The position numbers and the translations under genes were made by a program. A DNA stretch of 39,447 bases, from positions 1 through 39,447 of the forward strand of contig VGRW01000028.1 in the NCBI GenBank assembly GCA_016875225.1. Reading direction: 5' to 3'. Under the pieces are notes generated by a model, which was not told where the DNA came from, made no database searches, and saw only the letters and a list, made by a program, of their open reading frames with translations. Source of the stretch: Deltaproteobacteria bacterium (GTDB lineage: Bacteria > Myxococcota_A > UBA9160 > SZUA-336). Shown here in pieces: positions 7,047 to 34,564 of this stretch (positions within the stretch are counted from its first letter, which is position 1; each line of letters opens with the position of its first letter).

Positions 7047-8456
7047 GTGACCGTAGATCACGGCGCTCGGGCGGTCAATCCACAGCTTCGAGCCCTGCCG
7101 GCGGTCGATCGGCTGGTCGAAGCGGCCGGATCGGGATCCGGATCGGCTCGTTGGAGCCTGCTCGCCGCGGCTCGCGAGGTGCTGGAGGAGGCGCGAGCGG
7201 CGCTCCTGCAGGGCGCGCCCGAATCGGAGGGCGAGCTCGGGACGCTGGCCGAGAGGGTCCGGGTCCGCGCGGATCGCCTCGAGGCGCCGTTCCCGCGCCG
7301 GGTCCTGAACGCGACGGGTATCGTCCTGCACACGAATCTCGGCCGCGCGCCGCTCGCGCGCGGGGCGCTCGCGAGCCTGGTCGAGGCGGCCTCCGGCTAC
7401 AGCGATCTCGAGCTCGACCTGGAGACCGGTCAGCGCGGCTCGCGGACCACGCGGGTCGCGGAGCTGCTCCGCGTGCTCTCGGGGGCCGAGGCCGCACACG
7501 TCGTGAACAACACCGCGGCGGCCCTGTTCCTGGCGGTCGACACCCTCGCCGCGGGCCGCGAGGTGATCGTATCGCGAGGCGAGCTCGTCGAGATCGGCGG
7601 GTCGTTTCGCGTTCCGGAGATCATGTCCGCGAGCCGCGCGAGACTGCGCGAAGTCGGCACGACCAACCGCACGCACCTGCGCGACTACCGCGACGCGATC
7701 GGCCCCGAGACGGGAATGCTGCTGAAGGTCCACCGAAGCAACTTCCGGATCGAGGGCTTCACCAGCGACGTCGGCCTGCGCGAGCTTGCGCCGCTGGCGC
7801 GCGAACACGGGCTGCCTCTGGTCGAGGACCGCGGCAGCGGCGGCTTCGAGGATCTGAGCGCGAGCGGCATTCCCGAGTCCGAAGTCTCCGCCGGCCTTCG
7901 CGAGGGCGCGGATCTGCTGCTCTTCAGCGCGGACAAGCTCCTGGGCGGGCCACAGGCTGGAATCGTGCTGGGCAGGCGCGAGCTCGTCGCGCGCATGCAG
8001 CGAAGCCCGCTCGCTCGCGCGCTTCGGGTCGACAAGCTGACTCTCGCCGCGCTGCACTGGACGCTGCTCGCGCTCGCCGCGGGGCGTTCAGGTGAGATCC
8101 CGGTTCTGGCGATGCTGCGCGCCACGTCGGAGGAGCTCTTGGCGCGCGCCAGCGCGCTGGCCGATCGGCTTCGCGAAGCCGGGGTGCCGCGCGTCAGCGT
8201 AGAGACGTGCCGTTCTCCCGTCGGTGGGGGAGCGCTCCCCGAGCTCGAGCTACCGGGCGCGATCGTGCGCGTCGTCCCGGATCGCCCGGCCGACGAAGCG
8301 GCCCGACGGCTGCGAGCCGGGGCGCCTCCCGTGCTCGCCCGCATCCAGCGCGACGCGCTGCTGCTCGACCCGCGCACGCTCGCCGACGAGGACTTCGCGC
8401 CGCTCGTCCTGCGGATCGCCGACGCCTGCGTTGATGCGCTCCGCCGTTCTGGCTAA
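7047..8456 (+). CDS. selA: L-seryl-tRNA(Sec) selenium transferase
   Basis: SelA is a PLP enzyme that converts seryl-tRNA(Sec) to selenocysteyl-tRNA(Sec) using selenophosphate. The 469-residue length fits the family. Visible motifs are LNATGIVLHTNLGRAPL near residue 90, the cofactor region VVNNTAAALFLA, and FSADKLLGGPQAG with the PLP Lys at residue 297. It starts with GTG, with GGAGG six bases upstream. Its presence implies selenoproteins, yet selB, selD and the tRNA-Sec gene are not in this window; selA and selB are often adjacent, so the pair is split here. The TAA stop forms the first half of a candidate -10 for the next gene. Confidence 0.96.
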   Translation: MTVDHGARAVNPQLRALPAVDRLVEAAGSGSGSARWSLLAAAREVLEEARAALLQGAPESEGELGTLAERVRVRADRLEAPFPRRVLNATGIVLHTNLGRAPLARGALASLVEAASGYSDLELDLETGQRGSRTTRVAELLRVLSGAEAAHVVNNTAAALFLAVDTLAAGREVIVSRGELVEIGGSFRVPEIMSASRARLREVGTTNRTHLRDYRDAIGPETGMLLKVHRSNFRIEGFTSDVGLRELAPLAREHGLPLVEDRGSGGFEDLSASGIPESEVSAGLREGADLLLFSADKLLGGPQAGIVLGRRELVARMQRSPLARALRVDKLTLAALHWTLLALAAGRSGEIPVLAMLRATSEELLARASALADRLREAGVPRVSVETCRSPVGGGALPELELPGAIVRVVPDRPADEAARRLRAGAPPVLARIQRDALLLDPRTLADEDFAPLVLRIADACVDALRRSG

Positions 8457-12796: not shown

Positions 12797-13861
12797 ATGT
12801 TCGAGCGCATCGCTGAAATCGAGGCTCGCTACCAGGAGCTCGAGGACAAGCTCGGTCAGCCCGAGCTCGCCCGCGACCCGGGCAAGCTCCGCGAGCTGAC
12901 CCAGGAGCTCGCCGGCCTGCGCGAGCTGATCGGCGCCTACCGAGACTGGAAGCAGGTCGCCGCCGGAATCGCCGAGAACGAGGAGCTCGCCGGCGATCCC
13001 GATCCCGAGATTCGGGAACTCGCGAAGGCCGAGCTCTCCACGCTGCAGGACCGCCGGGTCGAGCTCGAGGGCGAGATCGTGAAGCTGCTCACGCCTCGCG
13101 ATCCGCGCGACCAGAAGAGCGTGGTGCTCGAGATCCGGCCGGGAACCGGCGGCGAGGAGGCATCGCTCTTCGCGGGCGACCTGTTCCGCATGTACACCCG
13201 CTACGCTCAGGGTCGGGGCTGGAGCGTCGAGGTCCTCTCGCTCTCCGAGGGTGACGGCGGAGGAATCCGGGAGGTGATCGCCAGCATCGGCGGCGCCGCC
13301 GTCTACGGGCGGCTCAAGTACGAGAGCGGCGTTCACCGCGTCCAGCGCGTTCCGACCACCGAGTCGCAGGGCCGCATCCACACATCGACGGCTACCGTCG
13401 CGGTCCTGCCCGAGGCCGACACCGCGGACATCCAGATCGACGAGAAGGACCTGCGCATCGACCGCTTCCGCGCCGGGGGCCCGGGCGGCCAGAGCGTGAA
13501 CACGACCGACTCGGCGATCCGCGTGACGCACATTCCGACCGGGCTCGTCGTCCAGTGCCAGGACGAGAAGTCCCAGCACAAGAACAAGGCCAAGGCCATC
13601 AAGGTGCTGCGCGCGCGGCTCTTCGATCTGGAGCAGCAGCGCATCGACTCCGAGCGCGCCGCGACCCGAAAAGGGCAGATCGGCAGCGGCGACCGCGCGG
13701 AGCGGATCCGCACCTACAACTTCCCGCAGAACCGCGTCACGGATCACCGCGTCGGCTTCACGCTTCACAAGCTCGACCGCGTGATCGAGGGCGAGATCGA
13801 CGAGCTGATCGACGCGGTGAGCACGAGCCTCGAAGCCGAAGAGCTGCGGGAGTCGCGATGA
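12797..13861 (+). CDS. prfA: Peptide chain release factor 1
   Basis: The 354-residue protein carries the peptidyl-hydrolysis motif GGQ at residues 230-232 (RAGGPGGQSVNTTDSA) and the RF1-type PxT codon-recognition tripeptide (HRVQRVPTTESQGR). RF1 reads UAA and UAG and releases the finished chain. It is followed by prmC, which methylates the GGQ glutamine, and the two overlap by four bases. UAG is a frequent stop in this window, which matches an active RF1 and argues against reassigned UAG. Confidence 0.97.
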   Translation: MFERIAEIEARYQELEDKLGQPELARDPGKLRELTQELAGLRELIGAYRDWKQVAAGIAENEELAGDPDPEIRELAKAELSTLQDRRVELEGEIVKLLTPRDPRDQKSVVLEIRPGTGGEEASLFAGDLFRMYTRYAQGRGWSVEVLSLSEGDGGGIREVIASIGGAAVYGRLKYESGVHRVQRVPTTESQGRIHTSTATVAVLPEADTADIQIDEKDLRIDRFRAGGPGGQSVNTTDSAIRVTHIPTGLVVQCQDEKSQHKNKAKAIKVLRARLFDLEQQRIDSERAATRKGQIGSGDRAERIRTYNFPQNRVTDHRVGFTLHKLDRVIEGEIDELIDAVSTSLEAEELRESR

Positions 13862-14709
13862 GCGCCGAGGAGTGGAGGCTGATGGACCTCGTGCGCTGGA
13901 CCGCGGATTACTTCCGGCAGCACGACGTGCCCTCGCCGCGGCTGGACGCGGAGCTGCTGCTCGCGCACGTGCTCGATCTGGAGCGGATGGACCTCTACCT
14001 GGCCTTCGATCAGCCGGTCGCGGCGCAGGACCGCGGGCGCTACCGCGAGCTGGTTCGCCGCCGCGCCAAGGAGCGCTGGCCGGTCGCCTACCTGACCGGC
14101 GTGCGCGAGTTCTGGTCGATGCAGTTCCGCGTCACGCCCGACGTCCTGATCCCGAGGCCCGAGACCGAGACGCTGGTGCGCGTGGCGGTCGACTTGAAGC
14201 CGAGACGCGTCGCGGAGCTCGGAGTCGGCTCCGGCTGCGTGAGTGCGGCGCTCGCGCGAGAGCTTCCCGACGCGGAGATCGTGGCGCTGGACTGCTCGCC
14301 CGCCGCGCTGGAGATCGCGCGTCAGAACCTCGCCGAGCTCGGCTTCGGCGGCCGGGTGACGCTCGTCGAGGCGAGCGGCCTCGGGGTGCTCTCGGGGCCG
14401 TTCGACCTGGTGGTCTCGAATCCTCCCTACGTCCAGGAGGCCGACCTCGCGGGTCTCGCGCCGGAGCTGCGTCACGAGCCGAGAGTGGCGCTCGACGGCG
14501 GACCGGATGGGCTGCATGCCGTTCGCCGGCTCTGCGCCGAGGCGCCCGCGCTGCTCGAGCGGCCGGGGCATCTCGCGCTCGAGATCGGCGTCGGGCAGGC
14601 CGACGCGGTGGAGGAGCTGCTTCGCGCTTCGGGCGCGGCGGCCGTCGATCGGTACCCGGACCTGGCCGGGATCCCGCGCGTCGTCGTGGGTCGCTTTCTG
14701 GAGGCTTGA
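13858..14709 (+). CDS. prmC: Release factor glutamine methyltransferase
   Basis: The 283-residue protein has the PrmC layout: an N-terminal helical domain (WRLMDLVRWTADYF..LDAELLLAHVL), then a Rossmann SAM domain with AELGVGSGCVSAALA and the substrate-binding NPPY motif at 188-191. It N5-methylates the GGQ glutamine of RF1/RF2. The ATG overlaps the prfA stop by four bases, and its TGA directly abuts the murA ATG. Confidence 0.96.
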   Translation: MSAEEWRLMDLVRWTADYFRQHDVPSPRLDAELLLAHVLDLERMDLYLAFDQPVAAQDRGRYRELVRRRAKERWPVAYLTGVREFWSMQFRVTPDVLIPRPETETLVRVAVDLKPRRVAELGVGSGCVSAALARELPDAEIVALDCSPAALEIARQNLAELGFGGRVTLVEASGLGVLSGPFDLVVSNPPYVQEADLAGLAPELRHEPRVALDGGPDGLHAVRRLCAEAPALLERPGHLALEIGVGQADAVEELLRASGAAAVDRYPDLAGIPRVVVGRFLEA

Positions 14710-32293: not shown

Positions 32294-32366
32294 CGCTGCG
32301 CGCGACGGCTCCGGTCCGCCGTCGCCAACGCCGAGTCGAAGGGATCGCGCAGATGGACGTGTGCAG

Positions 32367-32612
32367 ATGACGGGTCGAGAGATTGCGCTGGAGTTCACCG
32401 AGCTCTTCGACGACCTCGACTCCGCGGACATCAACACGATGCTCGCGAAGAACGTGAGCATGGACATGCTCGAGTTCTTCGCGTCGTACGGAGATCAGTT
32501 CGCCGACGAGTGCGCGCGCAAGGGACTCGAGCTCGATGACATGCGCGGCCGCCTGCCGAACCTGCTGATCATCGGATACATCATCCGCGTCCTCGAGGAG
32601 CGGCTGACCTAG
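32367..32612 (+). CDS. Small acidic hypothetical protein (81 residues)
   Basis: The protein MTGREIALEFTELFDDLDSA... is soluble and helix-rich, with a negatively charged first half and a hydrophobic end (LPNLLIIGYIIRVLEERLT). No signal peptide, Cys or known motif is seen. ATG 32367 is preferred because the upstream part of the frame is low-complexity and falls at the promoter. It ends 15 bases from the convergent STN lipoprotein gene. The good promoter and coherent composition support a real gene; its function is unknown. Confidence 0.7.
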   Translation: MTGREIALEFTELFDDLDSADINTMLAKNVSMDMLEFFASYGDQFADECARKGLELDDMRGRLPNLLIIGYIIRVLEERLT

Positions 32613-32627
32613 GACGGGCGGTCCGAT

Positions 32628-33968
32628 CTAGGGGTTGACCCCGGTCGCACGCCGCAGCTCCTCTTCCGTCGGCAGCCATTCGCCCAGGTCCTGCAGGAAC
32701 GCTCCCCGCCAGGCGTTCGGGTGCGCGATCTGCTTGCCGCTCAGCGGATTGACATCTCCGAGCAGCACGACGTACGGCGACACTCCGGAGCTCTTCGCGA
32801 ACGCGATCAGCGCCTGCTGCAGCGTCGTCCCGGGCGCGATCGTGATCTTCCCGCGCGGCATCTCTTCGACGATCTCGCCGCCCATCAGAATCTCGCGCGA
32901 CGGATTCTTCATGTGGGAGTTCGCCCAGCGCGCGAACTCCGGCAGGCTGCCCTCGAACTCGCCCGCCAGGAGCTCCCCGTGAAGCAGGTCGCGCCCCGCG
33001 AGGCGGTGCAGGTAGTCCCGGCTCTCGATCACCGGCACGCCGTCTTCCATCTTCCACTTGAAGTGCCAGCGCTCGGGACCCCAGCCGGACTGCGCCAGCT
33101 CGTCCAGGTTCTCCACCAGCGGCAGCTTCTGCTCGCGCTGACTCGACAGGTTCAGGAATCCGCGCGTGTTCAGGATCACCGAGCGATCGAGCACCAGGAG
33201 CGGCACCTGGAGTCGCGCGGACGTGCTCGCCAGCGCGCCCACCGTCGACTCCAGGTTGAACACCTGGGGCCGGCGCGAGGTCGAGGTTCGCGGATACCGC
33301 ACCTGGATCGTGGTGCCGACCACGGCCTTGCCCTGGGTCGGGTCGTTGATCACGTTCCCGGCCCGATACATCGTCCATCCCAGTCCCGAGGCCTGCGCGT
33401 ACTGGAGCAGCACGTCCTTGACGCTGGCCTTCTCGGCGATCTCGAACTCGACCGTGGGAGGCTCGGGGTCACCGTACACCCGCTCGATCACCACGTAGCT
33501 GGTCGGGATCGTGACCAGGATGTAATTGATGAGGTCGGCCATCGTCCCCTTGAAGCTCGACTTCGGGAGCAACGGCAGGTCGATCGGAGTCTTCGCGGTC
33601 ACGCTCAGGTTGCTGCGCACGTACAGCGTTCCGCTCGCGATCTCGTAGTCGATTCCGCCCGCGGCCTTCTTTAGCTCGCGCAGCGCGACGTCGACCGGGC
33701 CCGCCGGCTACTCGACGTCGACTCGGTACAGCCCGAGATCCGGCGTGTTGTCCTCGGTTCGGATTTCGTCGAGAACGAGCGGCAGCCCGGACTCGGCGGC
33801 AATCCGCTCGAGAGCCCAGGCGAGATCGACCCCCGCAAAGCGCATCGCCCGGATCGCGGTCGCGCCCGACGCGCTCGGCGGGGTCTCGGATCCACACGCG
33901 AGGGCGATCGCGGCAAGGCAACCCGCGAGCAGGGGAACGGCGAGGCGGCGTCTCTGGGTCATCGGCAC
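32628..33968 (-). pseudogene. STN-domain (secretin/TonB short N-terminal-like) lipoprotein gene interrupted by an in-frame TAG
   Basis: One frame runs 446 codons with a single TAG at codon 87 (33708-33710). The N-terminal part has a signal peptide with lipobox IALACG and an STN-like segment (VDLAWALERIAAESGLPLVL). After the TAG the same frame continues with VDVALRELKKAAGGIDYEIA and later SVKDVLLQYAQASGLGWTMY, two more STN-like modules, so the two halves belong to one protein. GTG 33968 is chosen since AGGAG lies eight bases upstream; ATG 33962 is an alternative. STN modules bind partners in secretin, pilus or TonB systems, but no such genes are near. Cause: true nonsense mutation, sequence error or readthrough. 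Confidence 0.78.
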
Positions 33969-33996
33969 GGTCTTCTCTCCTCGGCGAGGGATCGTG

Positions 33997-34025
33997 AGTC
34001 TACCGTGCAAACCGGCCCCCGTGAA
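33997..34025 (-). promoter_or_regulatory. Candidate promoter of the STN lipoprotein gene
   Basis: On the minus strand TTCACG (34025-34020), a 17-base spacer and TAGACT (34002-33997) fit a sigma-70-type promoter. Initiation near 33990 leaves a 22-base leader that contains AGGAG, which supports the GTG 33968 start. Confidence 0.45.
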
Positions 34026-34039
34026 CCGACGCCATCGCG

Positions 34040-34068
34040 TTGACAGCGCTAGCGGGCCGACCCAACCT
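34040..34068 (+). promoter_or_regulatory. Possible greA promoter (perfect -35, weak -10)
   Basis: TTGACA (34040-34045) is a perfect -35, but the hexamer 17 bases later (CAACCT, 34063-34068) is a poor -10. It lies 32-60 bases before the greA start. Confidence 0.3.
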
Positions 34069-34099
34069 TGGGCGCGAGGAGCGCTGACTGGTCACGAAG

Positions 34100-34564
34100 G
34101 TGCACATGACCCGCGAGGGGCACGAGATGCTGTCGGAGGAGCTCCGGCGGCTGAAAGGCGTGGAGCGTCCTGCGATCTCGGACGCGATCCGGCGCGCCAG
34201 GGAGCACGGCGACATCTCCGAGAACGCGGAGTACGACGCGGCCAAGGACAAGCAGGGCATGATCGAAGCGCGAATCCGCCAGATCGAGGACCGGCTCGCG
34301 CGCGCCGAGGTCGTGGACGTCTCGGGCCAGCCGCCCGACCGGGTTCGATTCGGGACGACCGTCGTGCTCGAGGATCTAGACTCAGGAGACGAGCTGACCT
34401 ATCGGATCGTCGGCGAGGACGAGGCCGACATCTCGAAGGGCCTGCTCTCGGTGACCAGCCCCGTGGCCCGGGCGTTGATCGGAAAACAGGTGGAAGACCA
34501 GGTGCAAGTCGTGGTGCCCAAGGGAAAGCGCTCCTACGAGATCCGCGAGATCCGCTTCTCGTGA
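34100..34564 (+). CDS. greA: Transcription elongation factor GreA
   Basis: GreA enters the secondary channel of backtracked RNA polymerase and stimulates RNA cleavage. The 154-residue protein has the N-terminal coiled coil with the acidic tip (AREHGDISENAEYDAAKDKQ, Asp and Glu at the tip) and the C-terminal FKBP-like domain (VSGQPPDRVRFGTTVVLE, ISKGLLSVTSPVARALIGK). The start is uncertain: GTG 34100, ATG 34106 (GAAGG five bases before), or even CTG 34088, which has AGGAG at perfect spacing. It overlaps trxB by four bases. Confidence 0.95.
   Translation: MHMTREGHEMLSEELRRLKGVERPAISDAIRRAREHGDISENAEYDAAKDKQGMIEARIRQIEDRLARAEVVDVSGQPPDRVRFGTTVVLEDLDSGDELTYRIVGEDEADISKGLLSVTSPVARALIGKQVEDQVQVVVPKGKRSYEIREIRFS

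What the first reader, a model, noticed from the sequence alone, without database searches (positions are those of the whole stretch)
32628..33968. STN-domain lipoprotein gene broken by one amber codon
The halves 33711-33968 and 32628-33707 lie in the same frame with only TAG at 33708-33710 between them, and STN-like repeats continue on both sides with no loss of codon character. A promoter and ribosome site are intact. Either the gene died very recently, the base is an error (TAC to TAG is one change), or the codon is read through.
Basis: seen in the sequence. Interest (0 to 1): 0.55.

Follow-up and report, generated by a model that had tools for sequence, protein, structure and literature searches.

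The report
Lipoprotein gene cut by stop codon
A gene for a secreted repeat protein, whole in six related bacteria, carries a single stop codon here, which most likely means it was recently switched off in this strain or that one base of the assembly is wrong; this is ordinary.

Summary
A 446-codon frame on the minus strand (GTG 33968 to TAG 32628) is interrupted once, by TAG at 33708-33710 (codon 87). Six syntenic orthologues in the same GTDB family are uninterrupted and all have leucine there, so the amber is private to this genome. The gene is still constrained after the stop: 25 of 26 columns invariant in the six are kept, coding signal is full, and it evolves no faster than its sister. In a 439-kb sample no other stop combined strong coding on both sides with no nearby start. 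Nothing points to amber recoding: RF1 is intact in the same window, TAG ends 14 of 37 window genes, none of 41 tRNAs has anticodon CUA, tRNA-Sec has UCA, and no PylS passes its cut-off. No reads or second strain were available, so a true recent nonsense allele (preferred) cannot be separated from a consensus error. One relative lacks the gene between intact flanks, so its loss seems tolerated. The protein appears to be an STN/N0-fold lipoprotein built as A-B-A'-B', with no Pfam or NCBIfam family. Ordinary; low interest.

The parts
32628..33968 (-). whole interrupted gene, GTG start to terminal TAG; predicted lipoprotein with STN/N0-like repeats
   Evidence: one internal TAG; aligns over its length with six uninterrupted orthologues
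33708..33710 (-). in-frame amber codon TAG, codon 87, in a column where all six orthologues have Leu
33711..33713 (-). codon 86 GAG (Glu), the other departure beside the amber: Asp in all six orthologues
33894..33896 (-). Cys25, candidate lipidation site after a hydrophobic leader
   Evidence: Cys at a similar place in five of six orthologues; lipobox rule recalled, no predictor run
33977..33982 (-). GAGGAG, Shine-Dalgarno-like, 8 bases before GTG 33968
   Evidence: read directly
33603..33857 (-). module A (residues 38-122), STN/N0-like fold; the amber lies in it, at the end of a predicted strand
33345..33572 (-). module B (residues 133-208)
   Evidence: matches module B' at 98.4% (hhalign, E 4e-15)
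33009..33263 (-). module A' (residues 236-320)
   Evidence: matches module A at 79.7% (E 1.5e-5)
32757..32987 (-). module B' (residues 328-404)
33618..33620 (-). first possible restart codon after the amber (GTG, codon 117); it would lack a signal peptide and nearly all of module A
   Evidence: no convincing ribosome site seen
34100..34564 (+). greA, divergent neighbour, conserved in the six orthologous loci
32361..32612 (+). conserved 83-aa ORF, convergent neighbour, conserved in the six orthologous loci
12797..13861 (+). prfA, release factor 1, which reads UAG and UAA; intact
   Evidence: TIGR00019, 507 bits against a cut-off of 423

Best explanation
The gene carries a genuine, recent nonsense mutation that is private to this genome. 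Release factor 1 ends translation at codon 87, so the cell makes at most an 86-residue lipoprotein stub with part of the first STN-like module. The rest is not made: the first possible restart (codon 117) has no good ribosome site and would lack the export signal. The allele is a null that is tolerated, because the gene is dispensable in this family. Shown: the amber, its absence from six orthologues, continued constraint on both sides, intact RF1, no sign of amber recoding, a relative without the gene. Inferred: that the base is real, that the stub is inactive, and that the mutation is recent.
For: One internal stop and no other lesion in 446 codons. Six syntenic orthologues intact with Leu at codon 87. 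25 of 26 invariant columns kept after the stop and 6 of 7 before it. No acceleration against the sister G001: window-only matches to an outgroup exceed G001-only matches for 4 of 5 outgroups. TAG ends 14 of 37 window genes and 69 of 190 long ORFs in the sample. RF1 intact. None of 41 tRNAs reads UAG. tRNA-Sec has UCA. No PylS over cut-off. G004 has GreA, TrxB and the 83-aa ORF but a Ribonuc_L-PSP gene in the slot.
Against: No reads, second assembly or second strain of the species could be examined, so a consensus error is not excluded. The very lack of further decay is also what an error would look like. Only six orthologues, the nearest 46% identical, so 'recent' is coarse. G004 may never have had the gene.
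Confidence: 0.62

Rival explanations
1. The base is wrong in the assembly, or is a minority variant taken into the consensus of what looks like a metagenome-assembled genome. The gene is intact in the organism and makes the full lipoprotein.
For: The gene shows no other sign of decay. The genome is fragmented, 182 contigs. Codon 86 beside the amber also departs from a column invariant in the six relatives, so neighbouring bases are unusual.
Against: In 439 kb no other in-frame interruption of this kind was seen, at about 90% sensitivity for interior points of long ORFs, so such errors are not common here; frameshifts were not surveyed. The site is over 5 kb from the contig end.
Confidence: 0.28
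2. The amber is read through at a useful level, as a low-output switch, by near-cognate tRNA, giving some full-length protein.
For: Constraint continues after the stop. In-frame stops in bacterial genes with dN/dS below 1 have been reported as frequent and mostly short-lived (PMC7918605; abstract, first part of Results and first part of Discussion read).
Against: TAG is not conserved: 0 of 6 orthologues. RF1 is present and TAG is a common terminator. No unusual RNA structure after the stop (z 0.61). No suppressor tRNA found; the tRNA set is incomplete (no tRNA-Trp among the 41), so this is not proof.
Confidence: 0.06
3. Two separate genes: a short lipoprotein and a downstream protein restarted at GTG codon 117.
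For: A GTG lies 29 codons into the downstream frame, near the edge of module A.
Against: The first 25 codons after the stop keep full coding signal and align with the orthologues. There is no clear ribosome site before GTG 33620. The restarted product would have no signal peptide.
Confidence: 0.03

Closest known systems
Single-nonsense (recent) pseudogene or nonsense polymorphism in bacteria; compare Belinky et al. 2021, PMC7918605 (abstract, first part of Results and first part of Discussion read)
   Same: One in-frame stop in an otherwise constrained gene; relatives intact; expected to be short-lived
   Different: Here the stop is seen in one genome only, so not even the orthologous stop in two or more species required in that paper is met
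STN / secretin N0 domain (as in FecA, PupB, DotD, GspD, InvG, PilQ)
   Same: Residues 40-122 of the read-through model superpose with these chains (Z 4.5 to 6.1, 71-99 residues aligned, rmsd about 2-3)
   Different: No Pfam or NCBIfam match; no secretin barrel or TonB receptor follows; the protein ends after an A-B-A'-B' array

Membership tests
Recent nonsense pseudogene | in-frame stop absent from orthologues | tested here: met
   0 of 6 orthologues have a stop there
Recent nonsense pseudogene | the lesion is real in the organism's DNA | not testable with these tools
   no reads or second strain held
Old, decayed pseudogene | relaxed constraint or further lesions | tested here: not met
   no second lesion, 25 of 26 invariant columns kept after the stop, no acceleration; hence recent if real
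Programmed amber readthrough or recoding | stop conserved at the site in relatives | tested here: not met
   Leu in 6 of 6
Programmed amber readthrough or recoding | tRNA that reads UAG | tested here: inconclusive
   none of 41 tRNAs has anticodon CUA, tRNA-Sec has UCA; the tRNA set is incomplete
Pyrrolysine decoding | PylS over its cut-off in the genome | tested here: not met
   best 21 bits against 178
Genome-wide amber reassignment | TAG no longer used as terminator, RF1 lost or altered | tested here: not met
STN / secretin N0 domain | STN/N0 fold or significant match to a family profile | tested here: inconclusive
   no convincing Pfam or NCBIfam match; the comparison supports the fold for residues 40-122, from a low-confidence model (pLDDT 59)
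Lipoprotein | leader followed by lipobox Cys | tested here: inconclusive
   hydrophobic leader and Cys25 read; no signal-peptide predictor available

The most novel reading that the evidence does not exclude
The amber is a live regulatory stop: this species makes mostly an 86-residue lipoprotein stub and a small, useful amount of the full STN-repeat protein by UAG readthrough with RF1 present.
Probability: 0.05. Interest if true: 0.45.

Novelty: new member of a known kind. Interest (0 to 1): 0.12.

Why it matters
Mostly as a caution: a clean gene with one in-frame stop in an assembled environmental genome is not by itself evidence of recoding. The side result, an STN-fold lipoprotein family without a Pfam or NCBIfam entry, kept beside greA in one bacterial family and absent in one relative, may interest people working on envelope proteins of uncultured bacteria.

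Tried and rejected
Amber reassignment, pyrrolysine and UAG-selenocysteine were considered and rejected. RNA structure after the stop: nothing unusual. Old pseudogene: rejected. Second copy in the genome that could make the gene redundant: only one match. The '1 TAG' reported for G006 is that gene's terminal stop (the match begins on it).

Failures: the first two versions of the in-frame-stop survey failed their own control because antisense ORFs had entered the training set (my reading); only the third is used. The pattern search was badly designed (arms in the wrong order) and says nothing. The second fold (residues 36-214, pLDDT 53.8) was worse than the first and was not searched. Foldseek alone gave no match at E 0.001 or better. 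PDB sequence search: nothing significant. The E. coli stretch was not needed. The paper lists were seen as listings; one paper was opened (PMC7918605).

Full report
What is there. On the minus strand, GTG 33968 opens a frame of 446 codons that ends at TAG 32628-32630 and is interrupted once, by TAG at 33708-33710, codon 87. A GAGGAG ribosome site lies 8 bases before the GTG. A sigma-70 scan of 33900-34200 found no promoter-like site, so 'promoter intact' is neither shown nor excluded.

Relatives. A search of 97 genomes with the downstream part found seven matches, the window's own and six others. A profile search of 90 genomes of the class found the same seven, all in the window's own GTDB family: 7 of 11 family genomes and 0 of 79 others. 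The six others are G001 (same genus, 46% identical), G009, G006, G005, G010 and G007. Each has one uninterrupted frame over both sides of the amber. G006 is the record JAFDDB010000072.1, 'Deltaproteobacteria bacterium isolate Meg19_02_Bin_157'. The six are orthologues by place: an 83-aa ORF and a BFN-domain gene on one side and GreA on the other were found in all six loci (GreA in L005 only as 19 residues at the contig end), TrxB in three (G001, G009, G006), the other three loci reaching less far.

The site. At codon 87 all six have leucine (CTG four times, CTC, CTT), and at codon 86 all six have Asp where the window has Glu.

Constraint. Leaving out codon 87, the window keeps 25 of 26 columns after the stop that are invariant in the six, and 6 of 7 before it (lost: D86E, L345F). 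Against five outgroups the window is not faster than G001; residues shared with the outgroup only by the window outnumber those shared only by G001 for four of five. The coding score is strong right after the stop (16.0 over 25 codons). These say that the lesion is recent, or not real.

How unusual in this genome. In the window plus twenty 20-kb stretches (439 kb), 1848 stops with at least 50 open codons on both sides were scored; 37 have coding signal on both sides. Thirty-five have an in-frame start 0-19 codons on, as adjacent genes do. One weak case has 28, and the window amber has 29 with strong scores. Sensitivity on 570 interior points of long ORFs was 0.90 at the threshold used. Frameshifts were not surveyed, and the training ORFs come from the same sample.

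Decoding. RF1 is intact in the same window (TIGR00019, 507 bits, cut-off 423). TAG ends 14 of 37 window genes (gene list chosen by eye) and 69 of 190 long ORFs of the sample. All 41 tRNAs found by the Rfam tRNA model were read by ARAGORN; none has anticodon CUA. The set lacks tRNA-Trp, so it is incomplete. The genome has tRNA-Sec with anticodon UCA and SelA in the window, so it appears to decode UGA, not UAG, as selenocysteine. PylS is not over its cut-off (21 bits against 178). The RNA after the stop folds no better than shuffles (z 0.61).

What the protein is. No Pfam or NCBIfam family matches any of the seven members convincingly. The fold model of the read-through protein is of low confidence (pLDDT 59), but residues 40-122 superpose on STN/N0 domains of FecA, PupB, DotD, GspD, InvG and PilQ with Z 4.5 to 6.1. 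Z of this size can also be a common arrangement: anti-sigma and phage baseplate chains score alike. Profile comparison of the modules shows A-B-A'-B': A with A' 79.7% (E 1.5e-5), B with B' 98.4% (E 4e-15), all other pairs under 4%, and 20 column shuffles of B against A at most 4.5%.

Dispensability. G004 of the same family has the 83-aa ORF, GreA and TrxB, but a Ribonuc_L-PSP (RidA-like) gene in between and no significant match to the lipoprotein there (best E 0.05 over a short stretch). This is one genome, and it may never have had the gene. G002, G003 and G008 lack both the gene and the 83-aa ORF in the data held; they are 58%, 73% and 89% complete.

Judgement. A recent nonsense allele is preferred (0.62) over a consensus error (0.28); readthrough (0.06) and a split gene (0.03) are unlikely. 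The weights between the first two are judgement, not measurement: the data at hand cannot separate them. Either way the finding is ordinary.

Noticed in passing
7047-8456 (+): SelA gene (512.7 bits); with tRNA-Sec (UCA) at G000:C7:43481-43575 the organism appears to decode selenocysteine.
   Followed up: partly
32361-32612 (+): Conserved 83-aa ORF with no Pfam or NCBIfam match, present in 8 of 11 genomes of the family, next to the lipoprotein gene in every genome that has that gene.
   Followed up: partly
33708-33713 (-): Two adjacent codons, 86 and 87, both depart from columns invariant in six orthologues.
   Followed up: partly
L085:3355-3747 (-): In G004 a Ribonuc_L-PSP family gene occupies the place of the lipoprotein gene between the 83-aa ORF and greA.
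   Followed up: yes
14011-14101 (-): ARAGORN tRNA-Pro (tgg) call inside what looks like the prmC gene that the Rfam tRNA search did not report; probably spurious.
   Followed up: no
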